The notes under the pieces are model-generated. The model saw only the letters and a list, made by a program, of their open reading frames with translations, ran no database searches and was not told the origin of the DNA. Below are positions 1 to 36,367 of a stretch of 36,367 nucleotides of DNA, piece after piece. This stretch comes from an uncultured Lachnospiraceae bacterium (lineage in GTDB: Bacteria; Bacillota; Clostridia; Lachnospirales; Lachnospiraceae), in NCBI GenBank assembly GCA_947565305.1, contig CANOFO010000019.1:1-36367 (forward strand). Direction: 5' to 3'. A program made the position numbers and the translations under genes. The stretch's first letter is position 1, and each line of letters starts with the position of its first letter.

Positions 1-699
1 ATTATAATACACTGATCCCGGTTCTTGAGAAACACCGGGAAGCATTTGGGGATATGCTGGAAGAGGTCACTGCTGACAGCGGTTACTGCAGTGAGAGGAA
101 TCTGCTGTATCTGAAGGAAAAGGGGATTGCCAGCTATACCAAGCTTCAGGATCATGAACAGAGAAAAACACGCGCCTATAAAGAAGACATCGGAAAGTAT
201 CACAACATGAAATATGAGGTTTTTGAAGATGAACATTATTAATATATGCCATGGCGGACGTGAATTAATGCATATCCGGACAGAGACAAAAGAACAGGAT
301 GGGTATACACAGACTTATGATGTGTATGGGTGTGCAGACTGCAGTGGATGTGAGCATAAAGCGAAATGTTTATATAAATATAATGCCGAAAAAGACACAG
401 AGAGAAATAATGTCATGAAAATCAATGAACGCTGGGAAGAATTAAAGGAAGAAACCCATGCCAATATACAGACCGAAAAAGGGATAGTGAACCGCCAGAT
501 CCGTTCCATACAGACAGAAGGCCACTTTAGAGACATAAAAGAGAACGAAAACTTCCGCCGGTTTAATTACCGTTCTACAGAAAAAGTATACAAGGAATTT
601 ATGCTATATGCGATTGACCCGAATATGAATAAATACCACCGTTTTCTGCGCGATAAAATACATAAATTCGAAAGGAAAACCGAGGAGAAAACTGTGTAG
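1..699 (+). pseudogene. IS1182-like transposase, 3' part, frameshifted
   Basis: This is the C-terminal part of a DDE transposase of the IS1182 type. The frame is open from the window edge and reads through TADSGYCSE, where the D is probably the second catalytic acid. It stops at 240-242. A second frame, open across the same point, continues with ICHGGRELMH, a Cys cluster (YGCADCSGCEHKAKC) and the family's TEGHFRDIKENENFRRF block, which probably carries the catalytic Glu. It ends at 699. The two parts join naturally if one extra A lies near 234-242 (EDEHY then YICHGG), so the element is probably inactive by a 1-base insertion, unless this is a sequencing error or programmed shift. The 5' part is outside the window. 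The family assignment is from motif recognition. Confidence 0.85.
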
Positions 700-9428: not shown

Positions 9429-9450
9429 TAACATATGAGGATGAATTATC

Positions 9451-9490
9451 TTCCGATAGGAGTTTGGAGTGTTACAACTTTGGAGACACC
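9451..9490. repeat. Half copy of the palindromic element at 11036-11148
   Basis: Forty bases matching the right arm of the 11036-11148 element at 35 of 40 positions: TTCCGATAGGAGTTTGG, then a diverged stretch, then ACTTTGGAGACACC. No left arm is seen nearby, so it is a degenerate single half. The rest of the gap to the lipoprotein gene holds nothing I can assign. Confidence 0.7.
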
Positions 9491-9593
9491 TTGATTTTGT
9501 TAATTCTTCAAGTTCCTTTATTCCGTCCGCTGACAATGCCAGAACGCAGCCCGCAATTTAGCCAAGTGACATTTATTCCAAGATAAAGCAATC

Positions 9594-10847
9594 CTACTCA
9601 CTAATTGCCGTCACAGAACCATTTTCAAAATAAATATACCTATTATCTGAATAACACCATTGTTCCGTAGTCCCCCATGCATATGTTGTCTTGTTAATTT
9701 TATATGGTTCTCCCCAAGAAGAAGCCCTAACCTCCTCAGCAGTCATGCCAATTGCTGGGGCTGGAGCCTGTTCTGGTTCTTCTTCCGCATATTCATCATG
9801 AAAATATTTCGATTTTGTAGCAAATACCCTTTTTCTATCCATTTGTTCAAAATAACTATCTTTTATGACTTCTATCTTGAAAGAAGAAGAAGCTTCACTA
9901 TAACTCATCTTATATTCTATATCCGCTGCACTAAATAGCATCGTATCATCATCATTTAATGTCAGTAAACCTGTCTCCCTTTCTTCCAGTGCACCTTCCT
10001 CTGATATTTCAAAGACAGTTGCTTCCCAACCTTCTAATTTCATTTCTCCGAATTTATCCCCCATCTGAGGATATTCACAGATAACCCAGTCTCCACGAAG
10101 CCAATACATGAGTTCTGCACGCTCCAGATATTTTTCACTTTCCTGATAATCAGCAAGTTCCCTAAAGGCTTTGATGGCCTCTACAAATTCGCCTTCTTCA
10201 TAATATTCTATACCATGGGCATATGCCAATTCTTTCTCTAACTTCTGCTTAACTTCCTTATTGCTGACTAGAGATAAATACTTGTCTGCCTCATCAAGGG
10301 AATTTGATTTGATAAGAAAATCAGTATAACCTTCAACCGTTTTTTCTAAATATTCCTTCGACTCCTTATATTCACTATCTGCAAAATACTCATATGCATC
10401 TTGAAATTTTCCATTTTCATACGCCTTTACCGATTCATTATATAGCTTCTCTTCTAAGGAATCCATTTTATCCTGTATACTTGTTAAATCAATTAAATTT
10501 TTTTCATTATCATTTAAAGCATTATACCGATTCTTAATATCCATAAGTTTCTGGTCATCTGCTGAACCGGCAAAATTATCAACATCAGCCTGAAGTTTCC
10601 TAATTGTATCAATGTTGACATTTTTATATTTTAATAAATATTGATAATTATTGATTTTTTCTTTTTCTTTCTCAGATAGCGACTCATAATCTTCGAACAA
10701 AGAATCTAACTCTTCCTGAGTGATATCTTGTCCCTCAGCCAAACTCATAACAGCCTTGTTAATCTTAACAACCTTATTCCCACAGCCCCCTAATAAACTT
10801 ACAGCTATCAAAAAAAACATCACAATAAATATCTTTTTACATTTCAT
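9594..10847 (-). CDS. Lipoprotein with tetratricopeptide-like repeats and a BamE-like C-terminus
   Basis: This is a predicted surface lipoprotein of 417 residues. The start at 10847 has GAGGAG about 11 bases upstream and gives a clean signal peptide with lipobox LGGC (Cys 22); the longer frame to 10901 would spoil it. A charged helical region follows, then two TPR-like helices pairs (YENGKFQDAYEYFADSEYKE and YEEGEFVEAIKAFRELADYQ), a beta-rich middle part (about 255-350), and a C-terminal block beginning IGMTAEEVRASSWGEPYKIN that resembles the SmpA/BamE-type fold seen in many Firmicute lipoproteins. The role is unknown; the repeats suggest protein binding. It is separated from the GH43 gene by the palindromic element, so probably transcribed alone. 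Confidence 0.8.
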   Translation of the reverse strand: MKCKKIFIVMFFLIAVSLLGGCGNKVVKINKAVMSLAEGQDITQEELDSLFEDYESLSEKEKEKINNYQYLLKYKNVNIDTIRKLQADVDNFAGSADDQKLMDIKNRYNALNDNEKNLIDLTSIQDKMDSLEEKLYNESVKAYENGKFQDAYEYFADSEYKESKEYLEKTVEGYTDFLIKSNSLDEADKYLSLVSNKEVKQKLEKELAYAHGIEYYEEGEFVEAIKAFRELADYQESEKYLERAELMYWLRGDWVICEYPQMGDKFGEMKLEGWEATVFEISEEGALEERETGLLTLNDDDTMLFSAADIEYKMSYSEASSSFKIEVIKDSYFEQMDRKRVFATKSKYFHDEYAEEEPEQAPAPAIGMTAEEVRASSWGEPYKINKTTYAWGTTEQWCYSDNRYIYFENGSVTAISE

Positions 10848-11035
10848 AAATAATCTTACTCCTCTTTCTATGATATTTAGGCACCATTTGATTCTTATCA
10901 ATTAACCATATATATTATCATACCACACCCCCAAAACCATTACCATACCTTTCAGTAAAACGTAAAAAATCAGTATTCCATAAATGCTTCTATAACATTT
11001 TACAATTTTGTAAAATGGCATAAATTCATCTAAAA

Positions 11036-11148
11036 GGGGTGTCCCCAAAGCCATAGCACTCCAGACGCCGTATCGGAAAATGATTATTTTTGGAAGGGAT
11101 TTGACTTTCCGATAGGAGTTTGGGGAGCTACGACTTTGGGGACACCCC
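11036..11148. repeat. 113-bp palindromic (MITE-like) element
   Basis: Perfect 15-bp terminal inverted repeats, GGGGTGTCCCCAAAG (11036-11050) and CTTTGGGGACACCCC (11134-11148), continue inward as imperfect arms to TATCGGAAA/TTTCCGATA. The whole element can fold into one long hairpin. A partial second copy lies at 9451-9490. It resembles a non-autonomous miniature element; no target duplication is obvious. It sits directly after the GH43 stop and, read leftward, is followed by TTTT, so it may serve as that gene's terminator. Confidence 0.8.
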
Positions 11149-11165
11149 AGTTTAATTACAAATTA

Positions 11166-14100
11166 CTAAATTTTAAAGTTCTTTGTTTTTGCTTTGGTTA
11201 AAAGCTTCTTATAATATGATTTCTTAGACTTCTTCACGGTAAACTTCGCATTTTTCTTGATGCCCTTAAAGGCATTCTTGCCAATGCTCTTGATTGCCGT
11301 GCCGCTGAACTTAACCTTTGCCAGCTTACTATCACCTTCAAATGCACTTGCCCCGATGCTCTTTACGTTCTTGCCGATTGTAACGCTCTTAAGCTTAGTC
11401 TGTTTGCGGAACGCTTTCTTGCCGACCGATGTCACCTTGAAGGTCATTCCGTTATATTTTACCGTTGCCGGTACATTCAAAGTGGTAAGGTTCTTCTTAG
11501 CTGCCCCGGTCAAAGCTACTTCCTTTACAGATGCGGTACATTTGGTAATCTTATATTTCAGGTTCTTGCTTGTAAAGTTCTTCGGCATAGTAAATGTAGC
11601 TTTCTTATCAATATTCTTGAATGCATCTTTGCCGATTGTCTTCACAGACGCTCCCTGGAACGTAATCTTCTTCAATTTCTTGGCATTGAGGAATGCTTTG
11701 GCGCCGATTGTGGTAACATTCTTGCCAATCGTCACGCTGGTAAGGCTCGCCTGGTTGGCAAATGCAGAGTCGCCAATTGCGGTTACCTTAAACGTTTCTT
11801 TTCTGTATACCAGAGTATCCGGTATCACAATACTTGTAAGCTGTTTATTTGCCCCGGTTACTGTAACGCTCTTATCATTTGCGCTGTAAGCAGTTACCTT
11901 GTAGGTAAGGCCGCTGGTTTCTGTGAATGTCTGGTTCAAGCCTGGTTTTTCTTCTTCTGTCTTATCGCCCGGCTTTCCTTCTTCCGGTTTCTCTGCCTCT
12001 GCAATTGCTGCGTTCAGTTTATCCAGCGCTGCCTGGATTTCGGTTTCACTTGCATCTGCTTTGTTCAGTACTGCCTCTACTTCATCAATCACTGCCTGTA
12101 AAGCTGTTTTCTTTGCTGCACTGAGGTTTGCCAGCATAGCCTTAGCCGCTGTAACCTTCTCGCTCAGCTCTTCTTTCACTGGGTCTTCAACTGGCGGTTC
12201 GTCTGGCTTTCCTGCCTCCTCAATGGCTGTATTCAGTTCATCCAGCGCTGCCTTGATATCCTCTTCACTTGATTCTGCATCGTTCAATACTGCCTCTGCT
12301 TCTTCGATGGCTTCCTGCAAAGCTGCTTTCTTTTCTTCACCGAGCCCTGCCAGCATACCCTTGGCTACGGCAAGCCGTGCGCTCAGTTCTTCTTTCGGCG
12401 TAATCTTTTCTGCGTTCTCAATGGCTGTATTCAGTTTCTCTAACGCTGCTGTAATATCAGCTTCACTTGAATTGGCATTGTTCAGCACTGCCTCTACTTC
12501 CTCAATGACTGTCTGTAAGGCTGCTTTCTTATCGGCGCCCAAATCTGCCAGTAAATCTTTGGCCGCTGTAATCTTCTCCGCCAGCTGTTCCTTCACGTTC
12601 TTATCGCCTTCACTGGGAGCACTGCCGCCTTCTTCTGTGAACTGGAAGTAGTCCACGTTCATGATGCTGTCATCTTTCAACAGTTGTTTTGACGAGTTAA
12701 TCACTGCCTGTAACAGCGGTTTCTGTGCAGCAGGCAAGGACGCAAGTTCTGTCAGCTGCTCTGCATATTTAATCCTGTATTTTAATTTCTCTTTTAACAG
12801 TTTATCCGTTGCTTTATACTGGTCTGCTGTATCAATCGCCGCATTTAAGGTTGCAATTGCCGCCGTAAGCTGCTCGTCTGTAGCGCTGGCATTATTTACA
12901 ACCGCCTGTGCTTCGTTTACCTTTGCATCCAGGGCAGCTTTTTGTTCCGTTTCATTCCATGCAAATCCAGAACTTACATTATGTCCTTTTGTAATCTGGC
13001 GCTGCAGCTGCTCCTTTAACGGAAGGCTGGATTCTGCTGCCTTGACTGCTGTCCATAAATCTTTTAACTGATTCTGGTAAGTCTCTGTTGTCGCACCTGC
13101 CTTCTTCTCATGGAATACAAGGAAAATATTCTGTGTACCTGTAACTTTCTCGATTTCACCGGTTACCAGCTGATAAGTGTAGTTGCTTCCGGTTTCCGGA
13201 ACTTCGATTTCGCCAATCTTTTTGCCCTCCGGATAACCTACACGGACTTCAATTGTGCCGCCGTCTTTCGAGCCTACTGCTACAGTAATCCTGTCTGCGC
13301 CTTTGTTGCCGAAGTCTAACTGGGATACAGACGTCCAGTCACCCTCCTGAAGGTCAGTCAATACCATGTTATAATCTGTAAATAAGTTGCCCGGCCGACC
13401 AGTGTCAGCTGCTTTCACGCCCGCATTCCAGGCAATCGTCTCAGCTTCAATCCGCTCATACGGATTCATGGATTTCAGCTGCGGAATTCCTTCATAGGTA
13501 CCTGAAATCGGCAGGATTTTTCCATCCTCATCCAATGTGATTTCGTCAATATGAGTAGAACGGTATCCGCGTTCAACGCCCAAAGCCTTCGATACGGTCT
13601 GTGCATGGTAAATGAAGTAACTCTTGTTATTGAATACAAACGTCGCATGATGGTTGTTTCCGCCTACGCCAAACCATGTCTGCGGATTGGAGAAAATCTC
13701 TCCCTGATACTCAAATGGTCCCATCGGATTCTTAGATGTCATATAACAGATGGTTCCCGTCTTCGGATAGCCTGGTACTGTTGTCGCTGTAAAGTTGGAG
13801 CAATAAGAGTAATAATATGTATCGCCGAACTTAAATATTCCGCTGTCCTCAAACATGCACGGAGCGTCAATTTCCACTGCCTCTCCATCAAGGCTAATCA
13901 TATCAGCGCCCAATTTGGCGACCCTTGCAGTCTTGGGGTTATCGTGCTGATTGCCAGGAATACCGCCGCCGAAATAAATGTATGCGCTGCCATCGTCATC
14001 TACCAGCACTGCCGGGTCAAAGCACCATTCCACACCCGCGCATCCTGGCGTTGCTTTTGTAATCAGCGCCTTACCATTCGGATTTTGCTCGTCTACTGTC

Positions 14101-16175
14101 GGGTCTGTCCACGGTCCTAACGGAGTATCCGCTGTCAGGACACCGATGCCGGAGGCATCATTTGCAAAATAGAGGAAGAATTTATTTTTCCCATCAATTT
14201 CCTTATGTGCAATTGCCGGAGCCCAGGAATGGCTTGCCCACATTGCCGGACCTTTGCCGCCATTTCTGCCTGCCACTTCAATCTCACCGTGGTCTGTCCA
14301 GTTCATCAAATCTGCAGAAGATACCACCCTAAGGCTGGTGATGTAACCAAAATTGTTGGAATATGGGTTATCCTTATCGGAGAACTCATAGTCGTCTGCT
14401 GTCATGTACACATATACTCTGCCATTGTATTCAATCGCATAGGGGTCTGCCCCAAATTCATTGGTAGTAATCGGGTTTCCATAACCGAACTTCTTTGCCA
14501 ACGCCTGTGTGTTGTCTTTATATTTTAAGACAAATACATCATCTACATAGAAGTCCATCAAATCATTGGCTGCATTAGGAGAGTCTACTGTAGGTGTCTC
14601 CACAACCAAGATATTGGAAGCGGTATCCATATCATAAGGCATGCCCCAATCTCCTTCAATCTTGGTCCACTCGCCCTTTTTCACTGCCCCAGTTGCCAAC
14701 ACGGAACTTTCCGTTCCATTATGCAGCGTCAGGTTGAAGTCCTTGGTCTCTGGTCCAGTTGTATATTTTACCCATGCAGAAGCAGTGTAATAGCTGCCTG
14801 GCGCCAGTTTTCTGCTCATATCCTGTGCCGGTCCGTTCGTACATTTTGTACGGTTCGTCACTTTCACACTCTTACTGCCGGAATTATATTCATCGGTTGC
14901 CACTGCAAGGATATCTGTCTCTCCCTGCTCATATCCGGTCCATTTCTCCAAGTCCCTTTCAAAAGAACCGTTCCTGACGATATTCTCGGAAGGCATTGTC
15001 AGCGATACGTCATCAAGATAGAATACGGCCGGTGCACCCGCTTCGACTGTCTTACCCCAGCTCCAATACACTTCCATCACATCGGTATCAGGGTCATAAT
15101 CTGCCAGACTAATCTCGCTGGTAATTTTCGACCATCCATCGCTGTTTACCTCTACCGGTCCGCCAAAACCAATATAGGAGGCTTGGGTGTCGCCTTTTTT
15201 CTTACCCTTGATGGTTGCTGACAAACTGCCGCTGCCGCTTTCTGTCTTCGCCCAGGCAGTCAACGTATATTTTTTACCACCTACCAGTTTTCCTTCTGCC
15301 AGAAGGTCGAACAATTCATATTTTGCTCCTTCCCAGTCCTTTGAATAATCAGATACTTTAAGGCTGGCAGTTCCTTCATGCGCTATATTCTCTACGCGCG
15401 CAACACTGGCAGAACCCATTCCTTTCCAGTTCGTATCAATAGGGTCTATCTCAAAAGAACCATTGGAGAGCAAATCTTCGGCTTCCGGCTCCTCCGGCTG
15501 TTCCGGTTCCTGGCCCGGGATTCCCATGTAGGTGATGGAGATGTCGTCAATCCAGTAGTCCATAAAATCATTTTCTGCTGTAGGATGTTCTGCCCAGCCA
15601 CTCTCGATGAAGAAAATATTTTTAGTCGTGCTGAATGGATAGGTAGCTTCATTTTCCTTTCCCTCATTTTCAATTACATCACTGGGTGTATATTTCACCT
15701 CAAATGATACCCACTGACCTTTCTTTCCTTCAATTGCGCCCCACTTTGCCTGACGATAGTGGTAATTGTCTCCATTTTGGAATGTAACATTGAAATTCTT
15801 TGTCTCAGGACCACTCTTATACATGAACTTTCCTTTAATCGTGTACTCCGTGCCCTTTACCAACTTGCCGGAAAGATTATAGCCTGCACCGCCGGAAGTA
15901 GTTGTCCTGCCGCTTACATGCAGGACATGGGTCGAATTAGCTGCCCCATTATCTCCGGACACCACGGTTTCTATCTGGGCATTGTCAAATCCTGCCCATC
16001 CTGTCGTTCCATTTTCAAAGTCTCCATTCTCCACAAGCTCTATCGGCTCTAGCTGCGGCTCATCCGCCTTCTCCCCGGCTGCCTGTGTGTCGACCGGAAG
16101 CATGGTCAGTGACATTGCCGCTGCTAAGACCACGGCCAAAACACGTTTCCACTTGTTTCCCACTGCTTTCCTCAC
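11166..16175 (-). CDS. Secreted GH43 multidomain glycosidase with BspA-type surface repeats
   Basis: This is an exported glycan-degrading enzyme of 1669 residues, probably an arabinofuranosidase or xylosidase. The start is GTG 16175 with AAAGGAG 7 bases upstream, giving a clean signal peptide (RKAVGNKWKRVLAVVLAAAM); the ATG at 16274 would not. Order: three CBM4/9-like carbohydrate modules (about 50-215, 235-390, 398-548), GH43 five-bladed propeller (about 558-900), CBM6-like module beginning ERIEAETIAW (about 902), three FIVAR-type helical repeats (about 1190-1400), and two lysine-rich LRR_5 BspA-type blocks (about 1428-1669). Likely GH43 acids are D in GADPYAI (about 574), D in CFDPAVLVD (about 720) and E in MFEDSGIFKF (about 776). 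The CBM6 seems split by about 140 helical residues. No LPxTG, so wall attachment may be through the basic repeats. Promoter-proximal motif shared with the GH127 gene. Confidence 0.9.
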   Translation of the reverse strand: MRKAVGNKWKRVLAVVLAAAMSLTMLPVDTQAAGEKADEPQLEPIELVENGDFENGTTGWAGFDNAQIETVVSGDNGAANSTHVLHVSGRTTTSGGAGYNLSGKLVKGTEYTIKGKFMYKSGPETKNFNVTFQNGDNYHYRQAKWGAIEGKKGQWVSFEVKYTPSDVIENEGKENEATYPFSTTKNIFFIESGWAEHPTAENDFMDYWIDDISITYMGIPGQEPEQPEEPEAEDLLSNGSFEIDPIDTNWKGMGSASVARVENIAHEGTASLKVSDYSKDWEGAKYELFDLLAEGKLVGGKKYTLTAWAKTESGSGSLSATIKGKKKGDTQASYIGFGGPVEVNSDGWSKITSEISLADYDPDTDVMEVYWSWGKTVEAGAPAVFYLDDVSLTMPSENIVRNGSFERDLEKWTGYEQGETDILAVATDEYNSGSKSVKVTNRTKCTNGPAQDMSRKLAPGSYYTASAWVKYTTGPETKDFNLTLHNGTESSVLATGAVKKGEWTKIEGDWGMPYDMDTASNILVVETPTVDSPNAANDLMDFYVDDVFVLKYKDNTQALAKKFGYGNPITTNEFGADPYAIEYNGRVYVYMTADDYEFSDKDNPYSNNFGYITSLRVVSSADLMNWTDHGEIEVAGRNGGKGPAMWASHSWAPAIAHKEIDGKNKFFLYFANDASGIGVLTADTPLGPWTDPTVDEQNPNGKALITKATPGCAGVEWCFDPAVLVDDDGSAYIYFGGGIPGNQHDNPKTARVAKLGADMISLDGEAVEIDAPCMFEDSGIFKFGDTYYYSYCSNFTATTVPGYPKTGTICYMTSKNPMGPFEYQGEIFSNPQTWFGVGGNNHHATFVFNNKSYFIYHAQTVSKALGVERGYRSTHIDEITLDEDGKILPISGTYEGIPQLKSMNPYERIEAETIAWNAGVKAADTGRPGNLFTDYNMVLTDLQEGDWTSVSQLDFGNKGADRITVAVGSKDGGTIEVRVGYPEGKKIGEIEVPETGSNYTYQLVTGEIEKVTGTQNIFLVFHEKKAGATTETYQNQLKDLWTAVKAAESSLPLKEQLQRQITKGHNVSSGFAWNETEQKAALDAKVNEAQAVVNNASATDEQLTAAIATLNAAIDTADQYKATDKLLKEKLKYRIKYAEQLTELASLPAAQKPLLQAVINSSKQLLKDDSIMNVDYFQFTEEGGSAPSEGDKNVKEQLAEKITAAKDLLADLGADKKAALQTVIEEVEAVLNNANSSEADITAALEKLNTAIENAEKITPKEELSARLAVAKGMLAGLGEEKKAALQEAIEEAEAVLNDAESSEEDIKAALDELNTAIEEAGKPDEPPVEDPVKEELSEKVTAAKAMLANLSAAKKTALQAVIDEVEAVLNKADASETEIQAALDKLNAAIAEAEKPEEGKPGDKTEEEKPGLNQTFTETSGLTYKVTAYSANDKSVTVTGANKQLTSIVIPDTLVYRKETFKVTAIGDSAFANQASLTSVTIGKNVTTIGAKAFLNAKKLKKITFQGASVKTIGKDAFKNIDKKATFTMPKNFTSKNLKYKITKCTASVKEVALTGAAKKNLTTLNVPATVKYNGMTFKVTSVGKKAFRKQTKLKSVTIGKNVKSIGASAFEGDSKLAKVKFSGTAIKSIGKNAFKGIKKNAKFTVKKSKKSYYKKLLTKAKTKNFKI

Positions 16176-16288
16176 AATTTTTCTCCTTTCTCTTGGGAGA
16201 AGGATTGTAGAAATTCCACAACGGAACCGCTTCAATCCTTCTTGCCTTTTATAGATATAGCATAACCTTAGCATAACTATATTATTTT

Positions 16289-16354
16289 TTCATCCCCACA
16301 AACTATAGAAATTACACAAAAACAAGCCTCATGTATTTAGTTTTCTACATTTTT
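16289..16354 (-). promoter_or_regulatory. Bipartite motif upstream of the GH43 gene
   Basis: On the plus strand a left block at 16289-16308 (TTCATCCCCACAAACTATAG) and a right block at 16336-16354 (TTTAGTT-N4-ACATTTTT) are separated by 27 bases. Both blocks, their order and the spacing recur at 21908-21973 before the GH127 gene. The left block, nearer the gene, ends 114 bases before the start codon and lies about where a -35 would be for a TAATAT or TATAGT -10 at 16275-16282. It is probably an activator or repressor site. The remaining gap, 16176-16503, otherwise holds only the GH127 terminator. Confidence 0.6.
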
Positions 16355-16391
16355 TATCCTTTCGTATTTCAAACGAGAGCATTAGACAAAA

Positions 16392-16426
16392 CCAGGGAAA
16401 CACTGATTCAATCAGCGTTTCCCTGG
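16392..16426 (-). terminator. Intrinsic terminator of the GH127 gene
   Basis: The perfect arms CCAGGGAAAC (16392-16401) and GTTTCCCTGG (16417-16426), with further pairing inside (CTGAT/ATCAG), are followed on the minus strand by TTTTGT. It lies 78 bases beyond the GH127 stop and before the GH43 control region, so the two glycosidase genes are separate transcripts. Confidence 0.8.
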
Positions 16427-16503
16427 TGTACTGACACATATTCTTATCTCAGCCGAAATCACTTATTATATATCTTATGATTCTTGCTTTTGGTAATCGA
16501 GCA

Positions 16504-19500
16504 TTATTTCGTAATCTTTACGCTCTTTTTCTGCCCTTTATTTTTCAGCAGCTTTTTATATGCTTTCAGTTTCTTAGCAGGCACTTTAATTTTGGCCTTT
16601 TTGTTGATTCCTGAAAACGCCTTAGCTCCTACCTTTTTCAGTTTAGAACTCTTAATGGTAATCGTTTTCAGGCTTCCAGCGCCGTAGAAGACCTTTTTGC
16701 CGATGCTGGTAAGATTCTTGCTGCTGATTTTCACGCTCTTTAATTTCTTACATCCTGCAAACGCATTTGCACCAATCGTTTTCACGTTCGTTCCCACCGT
16801 TGCGGAAGCGGCTTTTTTACAGTTTTTGAATGCCGAAGCACCAACGTCCGTAATCTTAAAGGCAATATTTCCAATCTTGACGGTATTTCCTACTTTAATC
16901 TTCTTACTGTTCTTATTGGCGATGCCAACGACTGTTACCGTCTTCTTATTGACATCCGTCACTTTGTAGGAATAACCGGATACCTTATATACCTTGCCTT
17001 TTACAACTGCATTGTCCGCCTCAGCTTTCAGCTGCTGGTAGCCAGATTCCGCTGCTGTCAGCAGGTTATAGTTGCTTACCAGGGCTTTTTGGGCATTAGT
17101 TAACGCATTGTATGCAGCCCTTGCCTGGTCAATCAAATTCTTGCTCTGTGCGGTATATGCCACCTTGCCAATTGCCGCAATCTTGTCAATTACTGCCTGG
17201 GCAGCTTTCTTGTCTGCTTCCTGCTGGTCCTTATCACCTCCTGGCTGGTCACCGCCAGGTTTGCCTCCGATGGTACCCCCATCTTCCAATGTCTTATAAT
17301 CAGCCTCTGCTTTCGTGAGTATATCCACATTGGTCACCAGTCTCTTCTGGTCTTCATCCAATAACTCATAAAGTGTCAGCGCCGCGTTGATTTTAGCTTT
17401 GCACTCCGGCGTAAGCTCTACTTTGCCAATTGCTGCAATTTTATCTATCACCGCTTTCACAAGGTCTGCCTCGCCCTCATCTGCCGACTGTATTTTTTTC
17501 ATAGAGAAATCATCAATGAAGAAAATTACCAGTTCGTCATTTGTGGGATTTTCCTTATATTCTGTCTCTACCAAAATGCGGACCTTGGTTACATCAGCGC
17601 CCTTAGGAACCGTAAAGTCCCCACAGAGGTTGCCCCATTCATTTACTTTGACCTTCTTGGAAACCATGACCTCCTTGGTTTCATCTGTCCCGTATAGGAT
17701 GGAAACGTTAAATCCCACTTCCTGAGGAGGATTCGGATTGTGCGCTTCACCATTTTTATAAACAACCCAGCCGTCAACCGTGTAAGTGTCTCCGGCTTTG
17801 ACCTTGCCGCTGATATCCTGCGCGGCTCCTGCAGAAGTGCTTCTGCGGTTCTCCACTTTCAGGGAACGTGCCGCATCATGGAATGTAGACCATCCTTCCC
17901 CTAAGGTTGCCTCACCATATGGAACCCACTTATTTCCTGCATTGCCTTCATTAAAAGTCCCATTTTCAATAATCTCTTCCCCAGACCCCAGGCCATCTGC
18001 ACGGACCAGATTCAGAAGATACGCTTTGGACGTCATGTGGTCCTGTGCATATACTTTCATGGGCAGGATCGTCGTTCCTTCCGCAAGGTTGAATACCTGC
18101 GGCTTCGCCTCATTTATCAGTTTCCCATCAATATACAGAAGGCCACTGCTGGTTGCCAGCTTAAAGTTCAGGGTTACGCGTTCTGTCGTTGATGGTACCT
18201 GAACTGTGTAGCCATTTGATGAAGTCTTAACCTTGCCTGCCGATGCTGTCAGTTCTTTAATCTGCGCGTCCGTATCGTATGCGCGCATCAGGTACAGGCC
18301 GTTGACAATGCGGGCGCTGTCTTCCGTAGCGCTGCCGCTTTCAAATTTTACTTTGACAATATCAAACGTGTCATTGCCTACTGTCAAAGATTCGGCATTG
18401 GCAACCTCGCTTGCCGGAATCTCGAACGATTTCTTAAAGAACAATTCCGTTCCATTATATTTCTCTACCGTATAATTGAAGACGGTGGAACCAATCGTAA
18501 TCTTGATGGTCTTCCCTTCATCTTCTTTGGCAAACTGGCATACCAGGGAGTTGGTTTTGTTCTTATCTACTTTCATATTGTACTGGAAATATCCGCCTGC
18601 CTGCGCCTTGCGCGTACTTCCCAGTCCGCTGACGCCAGTCTCAAATACTGTCTTATCTTCCCTCATCTGATGGGTGGCGTCATTCTCATACTGCTGGTAA
18701 CCTGGCTGAACGGAATCAATAATGGATTCTGCAAACCTTCCCTCTTCTTTCTCCGCCAGAATCTTCTCCTCGGAGGCATCCTCTGCGCTTTCAAAATACC
18801 AGTAGATGCCGTAACGTTCCTCATTCAGCGTGTTGAACGGCACAAATGTCAGCCCTTCCCCGCCAAATACAGATTCCGCATCCGTTCCGCGGATATGGAA
18901 TTCCAGCTTCCCTTCAGTCTTCTCCAGCTTGGAATTGATGTTATTCATGAATTCCTTGGTGCTGTCCTTGCCCTGGATGGCAATGGTCTCCGTACCAAGA
19001 ACCTGTTTGATGGTCTTGCCGTATGTCAGTTCAAGGCGCACTTTTTCTCCACCTACTACCTTGTATGCCGGTGCGCTCAGGTTCGCGCCTGCCCACACGG
19101 TATCGTCCCACTCTTCCGTTCCCAGCTTAGCTGCCAGAACAGTCGGACCATACTTAAACGCATACACGGAAGAGTTATCCGGCAGGCCAAATGCTTTCAC
19201 TTCCATGGGATAAGTGATTTCCACCTTATCATTATCATTCCATGTCCTGTCGATGACAAAATACTGTTCTTCTATATTATCCTCTGCTGTCTGCCCATTC
19301 ACCTTTACAATTATGTTTCCGGCAGCCCAATCTGGAACACGCAGTTTTAACTTTGCCTGTACTGGCTGCACATCATTCAACAGATTTACCGTGAACACTG
19401 CCTTGTCGCTCGCGGTCACATCACTGTCCTGCGTCAGCTTGATGTTCTTCTCTTTCCACACTGCCTCGGAAGCCACATACTGGTTGACTGTCAATGCCTC

Positions 19501-21846
19501 CTCATCTTTGAAATAAATGCTGTCTCCCAGCTTCGTATAATTCTCCATACCGGTTCCGGTACAGCACCAGAACATATTAGTAGATGGTTCGGAGGTTCCG
19601 AAGAACTTATAGTAACCAGTTGCCATCGGCGTAAAATAGGAAAATGCGCCCTTGGCATTGACTGCGCCCATAATCGCATTGCGCAAAGTATTTTCATAGT
19701 AATCTGCGTACTTCCTGTCGCCCGTAATCTTAAACAGCTCTTTGGAGAGCTTGAGCATATTGTGGGCACAGCAGCTCTCGCAGTTGCACTGTGTCCTGGT
19801 TGCGTCCAATTCATTGTCCCCGCGAAAATGCTCCATATCACTGGTTCCGCCTGTAATAAATGCATGTTTTTCTACCACCAGCGTCCAGAAATCTTCTGCA
19901 TACTGGAGATAAGCCGCTTCGTCTGCGTTCTCCACTTCCTTCAAAGCCACATAGCGGTTCAGCGCACCTAAGAATTTAGGAATCGTTGTGTTGGCATGTC
20001 TGCCTTTTAAGGTATCGCCGGAACCGGACAGGATAATCCCATATAAATCCGGGTCGTCAAATTTATGTGCCGCTTCCTTATGTTCTGTCTTGTGGGTATA
20101 TTTATACAAGTCATACATACAGTCGTTCATGCCACCGTACTCTGTGTAGGAGACAGTTTTCTGCTGCTGAACTGTCCACTTGCTCACACGGTTGTATACC
20201 CAGTCTCCCAGATTGGAAGCAACTTCCAATGCCTCTGTATTTCCCGTGTATTTGTAGGTGTCCACAAGCCCCTGGATGGTCTTATGCAAATTGTACCAGG
20301 GTACCCATGTTGCCCCCTGAGCATCCCCCTGTACGATATCAAACTGCAGTTCCACATTATTGACGTCCCCTACGTTCGCTCCAAATAAAAAGCCTTCCTT
20401 GGAACCGCCATAACTTCCGGCTGCATCCTGGCATTCCTTTAAGCCGGAAATAATCTCGCCCAGCTTCGCATCCAGCTCCGCATCCCCGGTTACCTTGATT
20501 GCCTGGGCTGCCGCCGTCAGGTAATGCCCGATACAATGTCCTGCCAAAAGCCCATTCTCCCAGCCATTATAGCGGGCGGCTCCCCTGGTGTCGATACCCG
20601 CATTTTCACGGAATCCGACCAACACACGGTCCACATCAAATTTCTTCAGAAATGCAACATCCAAATCCTGCGCGCCTTTATAGTAACCGTCTGTCACAGA
20701 CACCTCATCCAGCCCAAACTGTTGATTTTTGTAGGCTGTGTACTGATTTTCTTCCACGACAAAAGGCGCGCCTTTCAGTACGGTAATCTCAAACCCCTTG
20801 GTTTCCGTTACCTCTCCATACTGTATCGTTGCTGCCAGGACTACCTTCTTATCCGCATCGGTGGGGCGGGTAACCTTGCCCGTAGTCTTCACCACATTCT
20901 CATCGGAACTGTGCCAGGTAATCGTGCTGCCTTTCTTCCCTTTTGTGGGCAAAGAAACGCTACCGGTAATCTTATCCATATCTTTTCCGGCAAATGGATT
21001 CAGCGCGCCGTAGTCTGCTCTTACAATCTCCTCAGGGGTCAATACCTTCACATACGCGCTGTACAATGCCTTGACCTGCTCTGCTGTCGCTGCCGCGCTG
21101 TAAATTTCATACTGGTCGAGGTCCAGCGTAGCATAGCCGCCGCCATACCCTGGTGAATTAAATCCCAGATACTTATGGTCTGTATTATTTGCCTTTATCC
21201 TTGCCTCACTGGTTGCCGGGGTAGAAGTCACTGCCTCACCATTCTTATAAAAGACAACCTTTCCGTCCACACTGCTGAAAGTAACAGCAACATGCACCCA
21301 CTCATCCACCGGGAAAAACTCTGCACGGCTGGCATTGATGGCATATTCCGTCAGCTTCTCCTGGTCTGAGCCCACGGATAACTTTAATGGGCAGTTGTCA
21401 CTCAGACAGGAGAGATACCATCCCTGCCCATTCCATAATTGATTAGGCTTATTCCACATGATAATGTGCTCCCCGGAAAGGCTTTTGGTTGCTTTAAGCC
21501 AGAACGATACCGTCATATCCTCCGGCTGCAGCTTCTCGCTCGTTCCCAAATCAAGATACGTGCTTCCGTCCAGGGAAAGCGCAGCGCCGTCTACCCCTTC
21601 CGCAAACCCAGCCTCTTTCTGCTGTCCGTCTTTGCCATGGGATGTTACCGGAATTCCATTCTCAGAACTGTCTGTAAGGTTATTGTCAAACTTAAGTTCC
21701 AGAACCTTCGCCGCGGCCAGCGCACTCATATCCGCCCCGCTGTCGCTGCCCGCCGCCTGGATGCTCAAAGGTTCGATACAACCCAGCATCATGGCGCCTG
21801 CCAATAGCAGGCTGACTGTTTTTTTCCATAAAACTTTTTTCTTCAT
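16504..21846 (-). CDS. Secreted GH127-type beta-L-arabinofuranosidase with BspA-type surface repeats
   Basis: This exported enzyme of 1780 residues probably removes beta-L-arabinofuranosyl units from plant glycans. The start ATG 21846, behind AAGGAGTGAAT, gives a signal peptide (MKKKVLWKKTVSLLLAGAMM). Order: laminin-G-like module (about 50-262), atrophied Ig-like domain (267-352), GH127/DUF1680 catalytic region (about 359-1000), beta-sandwich modules (about 1070-1283), CBM4/9-like module (1290-1452), two helical repeats (about 1455-1615) and LRR_5 BspA-type repeats to the end. The GH127 zinc-thiol site is visible: ESCC (about 690) and FWCCTG (about 760), where the first Cys of the CC pair is the nucleophile in HypBA1. 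A Glu in MEHF (about 672) may be the acid/base. GH146 is a related alternative. No sugar transporter or regulator gene lies nearby. Confidence 0.9.
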   Translation of the reverse strand: MKKKVLWKKTVSLLLAGAMMLGCIEPLSIQAAGSDSGADMSALAAAKVLELKFDNNLTDSSENGIPVTSHGKDGQQKEAGFAEGVDGAALSLDGSTYLDLGTSEKLQPEDMTVSFWLKATKSLSGEHIIMWNKPNQLWNGQGWYLSCLSDNCPLKLSVGSDQEKLTEYAINASRAEFFPVDEWVHVAVTFSSVDGKVVFYKNGEAVTSTPATSEARIKANNTDHKYLGFNSPGYGGGYATLDLDQYEIYSAAATAEQVKALYSAYVKVLTPEEIVRADYGALNPFAGKDMDKITGSVSLPTKGKKGSTITWHSSDENVVKTTGKVTRPTDADKKVVLAATIQYGEVTETKGFEITVLKGAPFVVEENQYTAYKNQQFGLDEVSVTDGYYKGAQDLDVAFLKKFDVDRVLVGFRENAGIDTRGAARYNGWENGLLAGHCIGHYLTAAAQAIKVTGDAELDAKLGEIISGLKECQDAAGSYGGSKEGFLFGANVGDVNNVELQFDIVQGDAQGATWVPWYNLHKTIQGLVDTYKYTGNTEALEVASNLGDWVYNRVSKWTVQQQKTVSYTEYGGMNDCMYDLYKYTHKTEHKEAAHKFDDPDLYGIILSGSGDTLKGRHANTTIPKFLGALNRYVALKEVENADEAAYLQYAEDFWTLVVEKHAFITGGTSDMEHFRGDNELDATRTQCNCESCCAHNMLKLSKELFKITGDRKYADYYENTLRNAIMGAVNAKGAFSYFTPMATGYYKFFGTSEPSTNMFWCCTGTGMENYTKLGDSIYFKDEEALTVNQYVASEAVWKEKNIKLTQDSDVTASDKAVFTVNLLNDVQPVQAKLKLRVPDWAAGNIIVKVNGQTAEDNIEEQYFVIDRTWNDNDKVEITYPMEVKAFGLPDNSSVYAFKYGPTVLAAKLGTEEWDDTVWAGANLSAPAYKVVGGEKVRLELTYGKTIKQVLGTETIAIQGKDSTKEFMNNINSKLEKTEGKLEFHIRGTDAESVFGGEGLTFVPFNTLNEERYGIYWYFESAEDASEEKILAEKEEGRFAESIIDSVQPGYQQYENDATHQMREDKTVFETGVSGLGSTRKAQAGGYFQYNMKVDKNKTNSLVCQFAKEDEGKTIKITIGSTVFNYTVEKYNGTELFFKKSFEIPASEVANAESLTVGNDTFDIVKVKFESGSATEDSARIVNGLYLMRAYDTDAQIKELTASAGKVKTSSNGYTVQVPSTTERVTLNFKLATSSGLLYIDGKLINEAKPQVFNLAEGTTILPMKVYAQDHMTSKAYLLNLVRADGLGSGEEIIENGTFNEGNAGNKWVPYGEATLGEGWSTFHDAARSLKVENRRSTSAGAAQDISGKVKAGDTYTVDGWVVYKNGEAHNPNPPQEVGFNVSILYGTDETKEVMVSKKVKVNEWGNLCGDFTVPKGADVTKVRILVETEYKENPTNDELVIFFIDDFSMKKIQSADEGEADLVKAVIDKIAAIGKVELTPECKAKINAALTLYELLDEDQKRLVTNVDILTKAEADYKTLEDGGTIGGKPGGDQPGGDKDQQEADKKAAQAVIDKIAAIGKVAYTAQSKNLIDQARAAYNALTNAQKALVSNYNLLTAAESGYQQLKAEADNAVVKGKVYKVSGYSYKVTDVNKKTVTVVGIANKNSKKIKVGNTVKIGNIAFKITDVGASAFKNCKKAASATVGTNVKTIGANAFAGCKKLKSVKISSKNLTSIGKKVFYGAGSLKTITIKSSKLKKVGAKAFSGINKKAKIKVPAKKLKAYKKLLKNKGQKKSVKITK

Positions 21847-21907
21847 ATTCACTCCTTCTCCCTTCTTAGTAATATATAAAATTATTTTATTGTATATAAT
21901 ATCTGAA

Positions 21908-21973
21908 TTCACCCCCACAAACTAAAGTTTTTTATCCTTTATCAGCAAAAAATCTTTAGTTCTTAACATTTTT
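21908..21973 (-). promoter_or_regulatory. Bipartite motif upstream of the GH127 gene
   Basis: The blocks are TTCACCCCCACAAACTAAAG (21908-21927) and TTTAGTT-N4-ACATTTTT (21955-21973), with the same 27-base gap as at 16289-16354. The two blocks contain inverted AACTAAAG/CTTTAGTT arms. The gene-proximal block ends 62 bases before the start codon, upstream of a possible TATTAT -10 (near 21895-21900), consistent with a regulator contacting the -35 region. No database motif is recognised; it is neither a cre site nor an AraR box. Confidence 0.6.
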
Positions 21974-30949: not shown

Positions 30950-31104
30950 TATCGGCACGCGACGCTTCGCGTCTCCTGCCATTTCATCGGAAGGCATTCC
31001 CTCTCGGGTATCGCCACGCGACGCTTTGCGTCACCTGCCAGCTCGTCGGAAGGCATTCCAGAAATGCTTCGCATTTGCCTTCCTCCTGTGCTTCGCATTT
31101 GCTT
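30950..31104. repeat. Tandem palindromic repeats between ktrB and ktrA
   Basis: Two units of 59 bp start at 30950 and 31009. Each begins TATCGSCACGCGACGC, then TTCGCGTC or TTTGCGTC, and contains CTGCC and CGGAAGGCATTCC. Small palindromes are GACGC-TTC-GCGTC and GGAA-GGCA-TTCC. Beyond them are AAATGC-TTC-GCATTT (31062-31076) and a second GCTTCGCATTTGC (31090-31102). Such REP-like repeats can form hairpins in the ktrBA transcript and may lower ktrA expression relative to ktrB or protect mRNA ends. A short frame across them is probably not a gene. Confidence 0.75.
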
Positions 31105-34412: not shown

Positions 34413-36367
34413 CTACTTTTTCTCCTCTCCGGCAATCAAGCCTGCAATATCGAGAATCAATGCAATGCTTCCATCTCCAAGCTGTGTACAGCCGGACAAT
34501 CCCTGAACTTTTTTGATGTAAGAGGGAATTGGTTTTACCACAATTTCCTGTTCTGCAATCAGCTGGTCAATGAACACACAGACATTCTTATTCTCATGCT
34601 CTAATACCACTACGATACCATCTTCAATTTCAACCTTGGAATCCTCCAAATGGTAACGGCGGTTCAGGCGTATAAAGGGGTAACATTCTTCACGGAGCAT
34701 AATGTACTCTTCTCCGTCCGGCTCTTTCACCAGCATATCCTTGGTGACCCTGACGAATTCCTTGATGTCATTCGTCTCTACGACAAATGTGGAATTCCCG
34801 ACCTGCATGACAATGCCATTGATGATTGCCAATGTCAGCGGAATCTTCATGGTCATCTCGCTCCCGCCGCCTTCCACGCTGTCAATCTCCAGATTACCGC
34901 CCACAGCCTGAATGTTCTTAACCACCACATCCATGCCTACGCCGCGCCCTGAATATTCTGTAACCTGCTCTTTTGTGGAAAACCCGGCAAATGTGATAAA
35001 CTGGAAAATCTCTTTCTCGGTAAACTCTGACATAGCACGGTTGCCAATCAGACCATTATTTCTCGCTTTCTCATACAGTTTCTGCTTGTTCAGGCCTTTG
35101 CCGTCATCCCGGACAATAATATATACTTTTCCGCCTTCGTTCTTCGCCTCCAGGGTAATCTTCCCTTTGGGATTCTTGCCTGCCGCAAGGCGCTCTTCCT
35201 TGGACTCGATTCCATGGTCCACGGAATTACGCACTAAGTGCATCAAGGGGTCGGAAATATGCTCAATGATGTTCTTATCAACTTCCGTGTTCTCTCCGAT
35301 AACCTCAAGCTCAATATCTTTGCCCAGCTTCCTGGACACATCGAAAACAATACGGTTCATCTTCTGGAACGTATTCGTCAGCGGCATCATACGCATGGAC
35401 ATGATAACATCCTGCAGCTCTGTGGTAATCTTTGAAAGCTGGCTTGCTGACTTCTGGAAATTGGAGAGCTCCAGTCCCGGCACTTTCAAATCTGGATTCT
35501 GAAGCACCGTTGCCTCAGAGATAACAAGCTCGCCAATCATATCCATCAGCGAATCAAGCTTATCTACATTCACGCTGATATACGTCTGCTTGGGCTGCTG
35601 CTTGGGATGATTCTTCGCCAGCTTCTTGCTCTTGCCGGCTTCCTTACCCTTGATGACATAATCGCCAGGCGTCGGCTCTTTTTTCTCCGGCTTCTTCTCT
35701 TCCTCTTTCTCCTTGTCATCGAGTTCAATGACAATCGGCTGCTCCTCCGGCTCATGGAAGCCCATCTCAAACTCCTGCTTGGTGCAGTCATTGATTTCCA
35801 CACGTTCCATACCGGATGTCTCGCCAATCGCGGCTTTTACCTCCTCCTTAGAACACTGGCACTGTATCAGCATATGGAATCCATCTTCCAGAATCACATC
35901 GCCGCTGGCTTCGTTGCTGATAATGTCATCAGGAATATATTGTAAATCCTCTGCCACTTCTTTCAAGGCATACACAGCCGTATAGGCACGTATATTGCAC
36001 ATTTGGGTATCATCACGCCAATAAATTGATATCTTGTAATATTTGCTGCTCTCACTTCCTGTGGGCGCTATATAGAACTGGTCAGGCTCCACGTAAGTAT
36101 TTTCCGGGGGCAGTTCCTCACCCTTTTGGGAAATTCCGGTTTTCACCTTAGTCAGAAATTTATCAATCTCTTCCACAAGCTTAGTCTCATCACCATCCGG
36201 TGTTTCTCCGCTCTTGATTTTTTCCAACTCTCCAGTGATAAAATCAGATACCTCCAGCACATGGTCTACCAACTCCAGATGCGGAACGTTCTCTGGATGA
36301 GATTCTCTCAGATAATAAAATACATCTTCCAGTTTATGGGACACTTTCGTGATATTTTCATACATCA
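34413..36367 (-). CDS. cheA: Chemotaxis histidine kinase CheA, 5' end missing at the window edge
   Basis: CheA autophosphorylates on its P1 His and passes the phosphate to CheY. What is visible, 650 residues, starts in the P1 (Hpt) domain just after the phosphorylated His segment (MYENITKVSHKLEDVFYYL is the usual continuation of HTLKGSS...). The ATG at 36365 is therefore internal, and the gene begins outside the window. Then come a P2-like region (about 105-205), an acidic/Lys-rich linker (EEEKKPEKKEPTP), P3 dimerisation (about 265-330), P4 ATPase with N-box HLVRNSVDHGIE, DDGKGLN and GRGVGMDVV, and the CheW-like P5 domain to the end. CheW follows after 3 bases. Confidence 0.95.
   Translation of the reverse strand, partial: MYENITKVSHKLEDVFYYLRESHPENVPHLELVDHVLEVSDFITGELEKIKSGETPDGDETKLVEEIDKFLTKVKTGISQKGEELPPENTYVEPDQFYIAPTGSESSKYYKISIYWRDDTQMCNIRAYTAVYALKEVAEDLQYIPDDIISNEASGDVILEDGFHMLIQCQCSKEEVKAAIGETSGMERVEINDCTKQEFEMGFHEPEEQPIVIELDDKEKEEEKKPEKKEPTPGDYVIKGKEAGKSKKLAKNHPKQQPKQTYISVNVDKLDSLMDMIGELVISEATVLQNPDLKVPGLELSNFQKSASQLSKITTELQDVIMSMRMMPLTNTFQKMNRIVFDVSRKLGKDIELEVIGENTEVDKNIIEHISDPLMHLVRNSVDHGIESKEERLAAGKNPKGKITLEAKNEGGKVYIIVRDDGKGLNKQKLYEKARNNGLIGNRAMSEFTEKEIFQFITFAGFSTKEQVTEYSGRGVGMDVVVKNIQAVGGNLEIDSVEGGGSEMTMKIPLTLAIINGIVMQVGNSTFVVETNDIKEFVRVTKDMLVKEPDGEEYIMLREECYPFIRLNRRYHLEDSKVEIEDGIVVVLEHENKNVCVFIDQLIAEQEIVVKPIPSYIKKVQGLSGCTQLGDGSIALILDIAGLIAGEEKK

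What the first reader, a model, noticed from the sequence alone, without database searches (positions are those of the whole stretch)
16289..21973. Identical 66-bp bipartite motif upstream of both giant glycosidase genes
Both leaders carry TTCAYCCCCACAAACTAWAG, exactly 27 bases, then TTTAGTT-N4-ACATTTTT, at 16289-16354 and 21908-21973. The gene-proximal block has 18 of 20 positions identical and the distal block keeps all 15 non-spacer positions, while the 27-base gap shows little similarity. Equal spacing of about 37 bp between AACTA and TAGTT arms suggests a two-site or dimeric regulator on the same promoter geometry. It is neither cre nor AraR-like. This would be a regulon marker for arabinose-glycan genes.
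Basis: seen in the sequence. Interest (0 to 1): 0.75.

Follow-up and report, generated by a model that had tools for sequence, protein, structure and literature searches.

The report
Operator of a fibre-sensing enzyme switch
The matching DNA block in front of both giant enzyme genes is very probably the on-switch site, built into the promoter, through which one sugar-sensing three-protein system turns on a scattered set of secreted plant-fibre (arabinoxylan) enzymes in gut Lachnospiraceae.

Summary
In detail: two blocks (18/20 and 15/15 identities) at a fixed 27-bp gap, in leaders that otherwise hardly match. It marks a regulon. Six strong sites lie on five contigs of this genome, each before a secreted multidomain enzyme (GH43, GH127, GDSL esterase, CE1-like esterase+GH43). 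In the genus, 42 sites occur in 13 of 29 genomes; 40 precede proteins with signal-peptide-like starts.

The blocks sit in a sigmaA-type promoter: the proximal arm runs into a weak -35 ([AG]TGAAA), with a TATAAT-like -10 17 bp on. The distal arm is its inverted partner.

The likely binder is a YesN (AraC-type) response regulator encoded with a YesM-type kinase and a sugar-binding lipoprotein. It occurs in exactly the 13 genomes with the motif. In two scans of 392 genomes of the order, the only two foreign motif hits (weak ones) lie at the end of the two best foreign regulator genes. In one further genus the site precedes the kinase gene.

Binding is untested. The system resembles known three-component systems (CuaDSR); the operator is defined here.

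The parts
16289..16308 (-). Copy 1, proximal arm of the operator, overlapping the -35 (CTATAGTTTGTGGGGATGAA on the gene strand)
16309..16335 (-). Copy 1, 27-bp spacer
16336..16354 (-). Copy 1, distal arm AAAAATGT-N4-AACTAAA
16288..16293 (-). Copy 1, predicted -35 (ATGAAA)
   Evidence: column counts; 17-bp spacer to the -10
16265..16270 (-). Copy 1, predicted -10 (TAAGGT, a poor match; A2 and T6 kept)
   Evidence: A at hexamer position 2 and T at position 6 in 32 of 32 distinct sites
16198..16242 (-). 5'-UTR hairpin of the GH43-type leader, between predicted transcript start and ribosome-binding site
   Evidence: 20 leaders aligned, 5 of 11 consensus pairs with two-sided changes; here -23.1 kcal/mol, z -2.4, 3 of 200 shuffles as good
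11166..16175 (-). Secreted giant (1669 aa): CBM4_9, GH43, CBM6, FIVAR, LRR_5; start GTG 16175
   Evidence: (scanned with a longer start)
21908..21927 (-). Copy 2, proximal arm (CTTTAGTTTGTGGGGGTGAA on the gene strand)
21928..21954 (-). Copy 2, 27-bp spacer
21955..21973 (-). Copy 2, distal arm AAAAATGT-N4-AACTAAA
21907..21912 (-). Copy 2, predicted -35 (GTGAAT)
21884..21889 (-). Copy 2, predicted -10 (TAAAAT)
16504..21846 (-). Secreted giant (1780 aa): Laminin_G_3, GH127, CBM4_9, LRR_5; start ATG 21846

Best explanation
Each 66-bp block is the operator half of an activator-dependent sigmaA promoter. Two inverted half-sites (AAAAACTAAA...TATAGTTTTT, about 37 bp or 3.5 helical turns apart) are bound by a dimer of one AraC-type (YesN) response regulator. 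The proximal half runs directly into a weak -35 ([AG]TGAAA), 17 bp from a TATAAT-like -10, so the bound regulator sits where it can touch RNA polymerase (class II activation). The regulator is encoded elsewhere in the genome (contig C52) in a kinase-regulator-binding-protein gene set, directly behind another motif-bearing GH43 giant. The most likely sequence of events: a sugar-binding lipoprotein catches an arabinoxylan-derived oligosaccharide, the YesM-type kinase phosphorylates YesN, and YesN switches on the scattered set of secreted enzymes, perhaps including the giant in front of its own genes. Shown here: the sites, the geometry, the promoter elements, the gene set, and the co-occurrence and adjacency of regulator and site. 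Inferred: binding, phosphorylation, activation, ligand.
For: Regulon: 42 sites at E<=1e-4 in 13 of 29 genus genomes, 40 of 42 upstream of proteins with signal-peptide-like starts; the 6 strong sites of the own genome all precede secreted enzymes. Geometry: spacing 27 in 30 of 33 sites; -10 A2 and T6 in 32 of 32 distinct sites; the best internal similarity of the profile (29 gap-free rows) is between inverted arms. Control: 20 column-permuted models give 0 hits where the real model gives 45, on the loci fetched for the motif.

Regulator: a close YesN ortholog (50-54% identity, E<=1.9e-175) occurs once in each of 13 genomes, the same 13 as the motif; the 16 others have regulator homologs no better than E 2.4e-50 and motif hits no better than 0.0014. 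In all 13 the kinase, regulator and SBP genes are neighbours behind an ortholog of the C52 GH43 giant. In 10 of 13 that giant's motif is on the same contig; in 3 (G019, G020, G022) the contig ends inside the giant. In G140 the site precedes the kinase gene.

Two scans of the same 392 genomes of the order: the motif at E<=1e-4 occurs outside the own genome only in G470 and G583. These are also second and third of 25 regulator hits (42% and 40% identity). The site starts 16 bp after the regulator's stop codon in G470 and overlaps the last 29 bases of its frame in G583, in front of the SBP gene; in G470 two permeases, an arabinofuranosidase and GH43 follow.
Against: No binding, expression or ligand data. 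Co-occurrence inside the genus may reflect one shared ancestry; no tree was made. The query regulator was taken from G140 because a site lies beside its genes, so G140 is not independent. Two of 42 genus sites have no fitting target: G021:C1 lies 367 bp before an MreB-like gene, G018:C38 is a partial match near a contig end. Twenty-two regulator homologs at 32-38% identity in the order sample come without the motif at E<=1e-4. The G470 and G583 sites are weak: 25 and 26 bits with the covariance model (rough E-values) and only 11.0 and 9.7 bits with nhmmer (E 0.011 and 0.027 on 31 kb; that would not stand out in a whole genome). In G237 the regulator copies are only about 260 aa (the middle is missing) yet a site there scores 1.2e-9. 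In G000 a terminator-like palindrome lies between giant and kinase gene, so self-activation is uncertain. 'Signal-peptide-like' was judged by a hydrophobicity script and by eye, not by a predictor.
Confidence: 0.82

Rival explanations
1. The motif is the operator of some other DNA-binding protein, and the YesN system merely travels with the same enzyme genes.
For: Genus-level co-occurrence could be shared ancestry. A LacI-type regulator gene lies near the three-component genes in several genomes (Pfam-tested in G016: LacI 9.8e-16; others by eye).
Against: In a second family the only two motif hits lie at the end of the best foreign regulator genes, upstream of an SBP-transporter gene set; in G140 the site precedes the kinase gene. 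No LacI-like frame is seen beside the set in G000, G019 or G021 (G000's contig ends about 1.3 kb after the SBP gene).
Confidence: 0.11
2. The blocks are leftovers of a duplicated leader, with no regulatory role of their own.
For: The GH43-type leaders are homologous over their whole length, down to a 5'-UTR hairpin and a similar signal peptide.
Against: The window's GH127 leader shares little but the motif and promoter spacing with them; motif columns are near-invariant while neighbours drift; sites stand before unrelated genes in other genera.
Confidence: 0.03
3. The block is the recognition sequence of an alternative sigma factor (ECF or SigI type) rather than an activator operator.
For: The proximal block overlaps the -35 and is the most conserved part.
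Against: The -10 is sigmaA-like (A2 and T6 in 32 of 32), and the conserved distal arm lies some 40 bp or more upstream of the -35, beyond what sigma is known to contact (recalled).
Confidence: 0.03
4. The block acts as RNA (riboswitch or attenuator).
For: The arms are complementary (AACTA/TAGTT).
Against: RNAalifold predicts 0 pairs on 32 sites, no Rfam family matches there at gathering threshold (six sub-threshold chance-level matches around copy 1), and the block lies upstream of the predicted transcript start.
Confidence: 0.01

Closest known systems
CuaDSR of Ruminiclostridium cellulolyticum (PMC10384115; abstract and passages seen)
   Same: Sugar-binding lipoprotein, class-I sensor kinase and YesN/AraC response regulator of 538 aa encoded together.
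   Different: Senses cellobiose and controls a transporter-phosphorylase operon; here the targets are scattered secreted enzymes, and a conserved site is defined.
XuaDSR control of xynB in R. cellulolyticum (PMC12175519; two passages seen)
   Same: A two-component system for xylan-related genes acting on distant targets.
   Different: The authors write that they could not identify conserved binding sites; here a conserved site is found.
XydS/XydR of R. cellulolyticum (PMC3572039; passages seen)
   Same: AraC-type response regulator of 532 aa next to its kinase; activates CBM6-containing hemicellulase genes including one at a distance; binds upstream of its targets.
   Different: The term 'solute-binding' does not occur in the paper; no single consensus operator (its Table 3 lists several short shared words).
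AraC-type two-component regulons of Caldicellulosiruptor bescii (PMC8579813; passages seen)
   Same: Predicted activators with paired DNA repeats upstream of the promoter.
   Different: Described there as tandem repeats with large spacers (21- or 32-bp periods were searched for); here the arms are inverted, 37 bp apart, and one is fused to the -35.
AraPST of Geobacillus stearothermophilus and XylFII-LytS of Clostridium beijerinckii (recalled; searches gave listings only)
   Same: Binding protein plus kinase (plus AraC-type regulator) for pentose sensing.
   Different: As I recall, they control sugar transporters rather than giant secreted enzymes.

Membership tests
YesN / AraC-type response regulator | Receiver domain plus C-terminal AraC helix-turn-helix | tested here: met
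   Response_reg 5.6e-26 and HTH_18 7.3e-18 in the G000 protein; the same domains in G140 and G470
YesN / AraC-type response regulator | Binds the operator of its targets | not testable with these tools
   Only co-occurrence and adjacency
SBP-kinase-regulator three-component system | Three genes together: solute-binding protein, YesM-type kinase, YesN-type regulator | tested here: met
   13 of 13 genus genomes with the regulator, plus G140, G171, G237, G470, G583, by tblastn; order differs in G013 and G140. Pfam in G000: His_kinase 2.1e-25, SBP_bac_1 1.4e-7; the G470 SBP has no Pfam match but is 50% identical to that of G140
SBP-kinase-regulator three-component system | The binding protein is a sugar sensor for the kinase, not a transport protein | tested here: inconclusive
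   In G016 the four genes after the SBP gene are LacI, Big_2, FGGY kinase and Fucose_iso_C, no permease; other genus loci by eye only. In G470 two permease genes follow it. Ligand and kinase contact unknown
sigmaA promoter | -10 with A at 2 and T at 6, 17-bp spacing to a -35 | tested here: met
   A 32/32 and T 32/32; TG of the -35 in 32/32; the -35 itself is weak
Class II activator site | Operator overlapping or abutting the -35 | tested here: met
   Proximal arm continues into [AG]TGAAA; activation itself not tested
AraR or cre operator | Match to the known operator consensus | not tested
   No call compared the site with those consensus sequences; from memory it resembles neither
Cis-acting RNA element | Conserved base pairing | tested here: not met
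   0 pairs on 32 sites; no Rfam match at gathering threshold

The most novel reading that the evidence does not exclude
One three-component arabinoxylan sensor is the master switch for the giant, LRR-tailed secreted enzymes of a gut Lachnospiraceae genus. It works through a new operator type for YesN regulators: two inverted arms 3.5 helical turns apart, the inner one fused to the -35, so that the dimer must bend or loop DNA to reach polymerase. Its own genes sit behind a target gene, giving positive feedback.
Probability: 0.5. Interest if true: 0.7.

Novelty: new member of a known kind. Interest (0 to 1): 0.62.

Why it matters
YesN-type systems are common in gut Firmicutes (recalled; 27 of 29 genus genomes match the query at E<=1e-20), and their DNA targets are hard to find: one recent study of such a system says it could not identify conserved binding sites (PMC12175519), and the XydR paper says no consensus site is known for the AraC/XylS family (PMC3572039). 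A fixed, searchable operator lets one list the members of a fibre-degradation regulon in uncultured species and assign unknown secreted proteins to arabinoxylan use. It also gives a ready reporter sequence for finding the sugar that the system senses.

Tried and rejected
Riboswitch or attenuator reading of the block: rejected. Alternative sigma factor: disfavoured by the -10 columns. A regulator encoded in the window: none among the 22 window proteins scanned with Pfam has a DNA-binding regulator domain; one has no family at all, and the ORF at 34413-36365 and small ORFs were not scanned. Direct-repeat architecture: the best direct similarity in the profile is 0.56 against 0.76 inverted.

Weak family-level hits (E 7e-4 to 0.01; loci L086-L109): when read, 15 of 24 have no reading frame of 120 aa or more with a ribosome-binding site within 400 bp. 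Four of these genomes (G056, G374, G321, G181) also have 32-37% regulator homologs, which I first took as a hint. Read by eye, three do not look like sites; the fourth (L104, G181) keeps a proximal arm and a TATAAT at 17 bp but no distal arm. L107 (G407) looks like a possible further site. Neither was pursued. Structure prediction was not used: it would not test DNA specificity.

Not done: a tree of the genus to correct the 13-versus-16 co-occurrence for ancestry; a test of whether changes in the regulator's DNA-binding domain follow changes in the site; naming the genus (one search gave 19 exact matches, titled uncultured or unnamed Lachnospiraceae except one 'Eubacterium sp.'; records of the own genome may be left out there).
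Full report
CHECKING THE OBSERVATION. Aligned without gaps the two leaders agree in 18 of 20 positions of the proximal block and 15 of 15 of the distal one, and little elsewhere. Shuffled leaders never reach the alignment score (0 of 1000; maximum 19 against 24) or the two-block identity (maximum 25 against 33 of 35 in 300 shuffles). Both genes lie on the minus strand, so the motif reads AAAAATGT-N4-AACTAAA-N27-CTWTAGTTTGTGGGGRTGAA toward them.

THE MOTIF IN RELATIVES. A pattern search of 29 genomes of the genus gave many near matches, often CTATAGTTTTTGGGGATGAA, along with chance matches (the reversed control pattern also hits). I read 33 sites, 32 of them distinct. The distal arm lies 27 bp from the proximal one in 30 of 33, 26 bp in two and 28 bp in one; for three of the thirty and one of the 26s this register ties with another as best match to AACTAAA. 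A sequence-only model (R1) then found 42 sites at E<=1e-4 in 13 of the 29 genomes; the other 16 have none better than 0.0014. All 42 were read with their flanks: 40 precede a gene whose protein begins with a basic, hydrophobic, signal-peptide-like stretch (judged by script and eye). The exceptions are G021:C1, 367 bp before an MreB-like gene, and G018:C38, a partial match near a contig end. Over the loci, 45 sites pass nhmmer E<=1e-3; 43 precede such proteins, one precedes a histidine kinase (G140), and one is the G021:C1 case. Twenty models with permuted columns gave no hit at that threshold in the same 777 kb. Those loci were fetched because of the motif, so the 45 are no random sample; the 42 are genome-wide.

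PROMOTER ANATOMY. The column counts show a sigmaA promoter attached to the motif. Positions 16-21, [AG]TGAAA, form a weak -35 inside and just past the proximal block. After 17 bp comes a TATAAT-like -10 with A at its second and T at its last position in 32 of 32 distinct sites. The best internal similarity of the profile (29 gap-free rows) is between the two arms in inverted orientation (AAAACTAAATAT against TCCTATAGTTTT, correlation 0.76; best direct pair 0.56). AACTA and TAGTT are 37 bp apart, about 3.5 helical turns. No RNA structure is predicted over the motif.

THE REGULON IN THIS GENOME. Six strong sites lie on five contigs (two further matches at E 0.045 and 0.074 are taken as noise). 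Pfam domains of the six proteins: GH43+CBM6+CBM4_9+FIVAR (window); GH127 (window); GDSL esterase+CBM4_9 (C20); GH43 in two stretches+GH43_C2+CBM6+CBM4_9 (C52); GH43+CBM6+CBM4_9 (C93); esterase PF00756 ('CE1-like' is my label)+GH43 (C144). All six carry LRR_5 repeats. A GH10 xylanase is a target in G014. Xylanase, GH43, GH127 and two kinds of esterase together suggest substituted arabinoxylan; this is inference from families, not assay.

FINDING THE REGULATOR. In G140, from another genus, the site precedes kinase, SBP and regulator genes beside a GH10 gene and a GH43 giant. The regulator is a YesN-type protein (receiver plus AraC helix-turn-helix). Searched in the 29 genus genomes, a 50-54% identical ortholog (E<=1.9e-175) occurs once in each of 13 genomes. 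The next-best matches reach only E 2.4e-50, and at most 28% identity where they span the full length. These 13 are exactly the motif-bearing genomes. In all 13 the kinase, regulator and SBP genes are neighbours (in G013 the SBP comes first) behind an ortholog of the C52 giant (50-81% identity in the best stretch; GH43 confirmed by Pfam in G000, G013, G021 and G027). In 10 the motif in front of that giant is on the same contig; in G019, G020 and G022 the contig ends inside the giant.

FURTHER TESTS. In 397 genomes of the family, six have the motif at E<=1e-4: G000, G014, G140, G171, G237 and G267. Five of them are the top five of 23 regulator hits (the 18 others are 32-38% identical). G140 is the query itself, and G267's copy is a 252-residue piece at a contig end. 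The sixth, G237, is not on that list: its two regulator copies are short, one a 264-aa frame, the other matched in the same two segments. Its sites lie right behind an SBP gene and right behind a regulator gene.

In 392 genomes of the order, two foreign genomes, of a second family, have the motif at E<=1e-4, and they hold the two best foreign regulator hits (42% and 40%). The site starts 16 bp after the regulator's stop codon in G470 and overlaps the last 29 bases of the regulator's frame in G583. In G470 it stands before SBP, two permease genes, an alpha-L-arabinofuranosidase and GH43, with GH3 and GH127 nearby; G583 looks alike by eye. The 17-bp spacing and TATAAT are present in both. The two scans used different queries, a DNA profile and a protein, and their meeting at one place is the strongest evidence here. 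But these two sites are weak (25-26 bits with the covariance model, 11.0 and 9.7 bits with nhmmer), and 22 further homologs at 32-38% identity in that sample have no such site; they are probably paralogs with other targets.

HOW IT PROBABLY WORKS. See Best explanation. Shown: sites, spacing, promoter elements, targets, co-occurrence, adjacency. Inferred: that YesN binds, as a dimer, after phosphorylation; that it activates; that the SBP senses an arabinoxylan fragment. In the own genome a terminator-like palindrome lies between the C52 giant and the kinase gene, so whether the system boosts itself is open. In G016 the genes beyond the SBP are a LacI-type regulator, a Big_2 protein, an FGGY sugar kinase and a Fucose_iso_C isomerase, which fits sugar use; the LacI protein is a possible rival regulator but is not seen beside the set in G000, G019 or G021.

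COMPARISON. The architecture is that of known three-component systems: CuaDSR (PMC10384115, abstract and passages) and, from its name, XuaDSR (PMC12175519, two passages). XydS/R (PMC3572039, passages) controls hemicellulase genes. The closest solved relatives of the regulator are single receiver or DNA-binding domains (6swf, 3oou, 6swi, 3lsg) and, of the SBP, 9pmy (E 1.2e-55). Operators reported for AraC-type two-component regulators in C. bescii are tandem repeats (PMC8579813, passages); here the arms are inverted. A fifth paper (PMC10766802) held nothing to the point in the one passage seen. My six paper searches (open-licence PMC only; listings of the top 10-20) showed no paper on this motif or regulon; that is a weak negative.

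VERDICT. A real operator-promoter of a real regulon, with a well-supported but untested regulator: a new member of a known kind, with an unusual operator layout. On checking I lowered the main confidence from 0.83 to 0.82 and raised the first rival from 0.10 to 0.11, because the weakness of the two order-level sites and the nearby LacI gene are now stated in full.

Noticed in passing
window 16198-16242 (minus strand); leaders of L110, L113, L115-L117, L122, L127, L130, L139, L140, L142, L143 and others: GH43-type leaders carry a 5'-UTR hairpin (GGAAGGATTG...CAATCCTTCC) between predicted transcript start and ribosome-binding site, with two-sided changes in 5 of 11 consensus pairs over 20 leaders, although the consensus energy is only -0.5 kcal/mol. 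Of six folded, four have z from -2.4 to -4.3 and two about -1. The window's GH127 leader lacks it by eye. It may stabilise the mRNA.
   Followed up: partly
window about 11035-11150; G000:C52 about 10820-10940; window about 9430-9500: A long terminator-like palindrome (CTCCCCAAA...TTTGGGGACA) follows the window GH43 giant and the C52 GH43 giant; its 24-base core occurs perfectly only at those two places in the genome, with a partial copy by eye at window 9430-9500.
   Followed up: partly
L200:7718-8512 and L151:946-1731 (G237): G237 has two shortened YesN regulators, one a 264-aa frame with receiver and AraC parts joined and the usual middle of about 270 residues missing; both lie close to motif sites.
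   Followed up: no
L188:12433-18179 (G016): Beyond the three-component genes lie a LacI-type regulator, a Big_2 protein, an FGGY kinase and a Fucose_iso_C isomerase; similar frames by eye in several other genomes.
   Followed up: partly
L151:1-811 (G237): A motif-headed, cut-off secreted protein matches Laminin_G_3 (68 bits) and, overlapping and weaker (32 bits), PF07953, a lectin-like domain named after clostridial neurotoxins; I read it as an ordinary carbohydrate-binding domain.
   Followed up: no
window 31003-31090 (minus strand): Rfam GA-cis RNA above its gathering score (38.1 against 34.7 bits).
   Followed up: no
window 214-699: Transposase domain DDE_Tnp_1_6 in a 161-aa frame.
   Followed up: no
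L107 (G407) and L104 (G181): Possible further, diverged sites in other genera: L107 with both arms before a signal-peptide-like start, L104 with proximal arm and -10 only.
   Followed up: no
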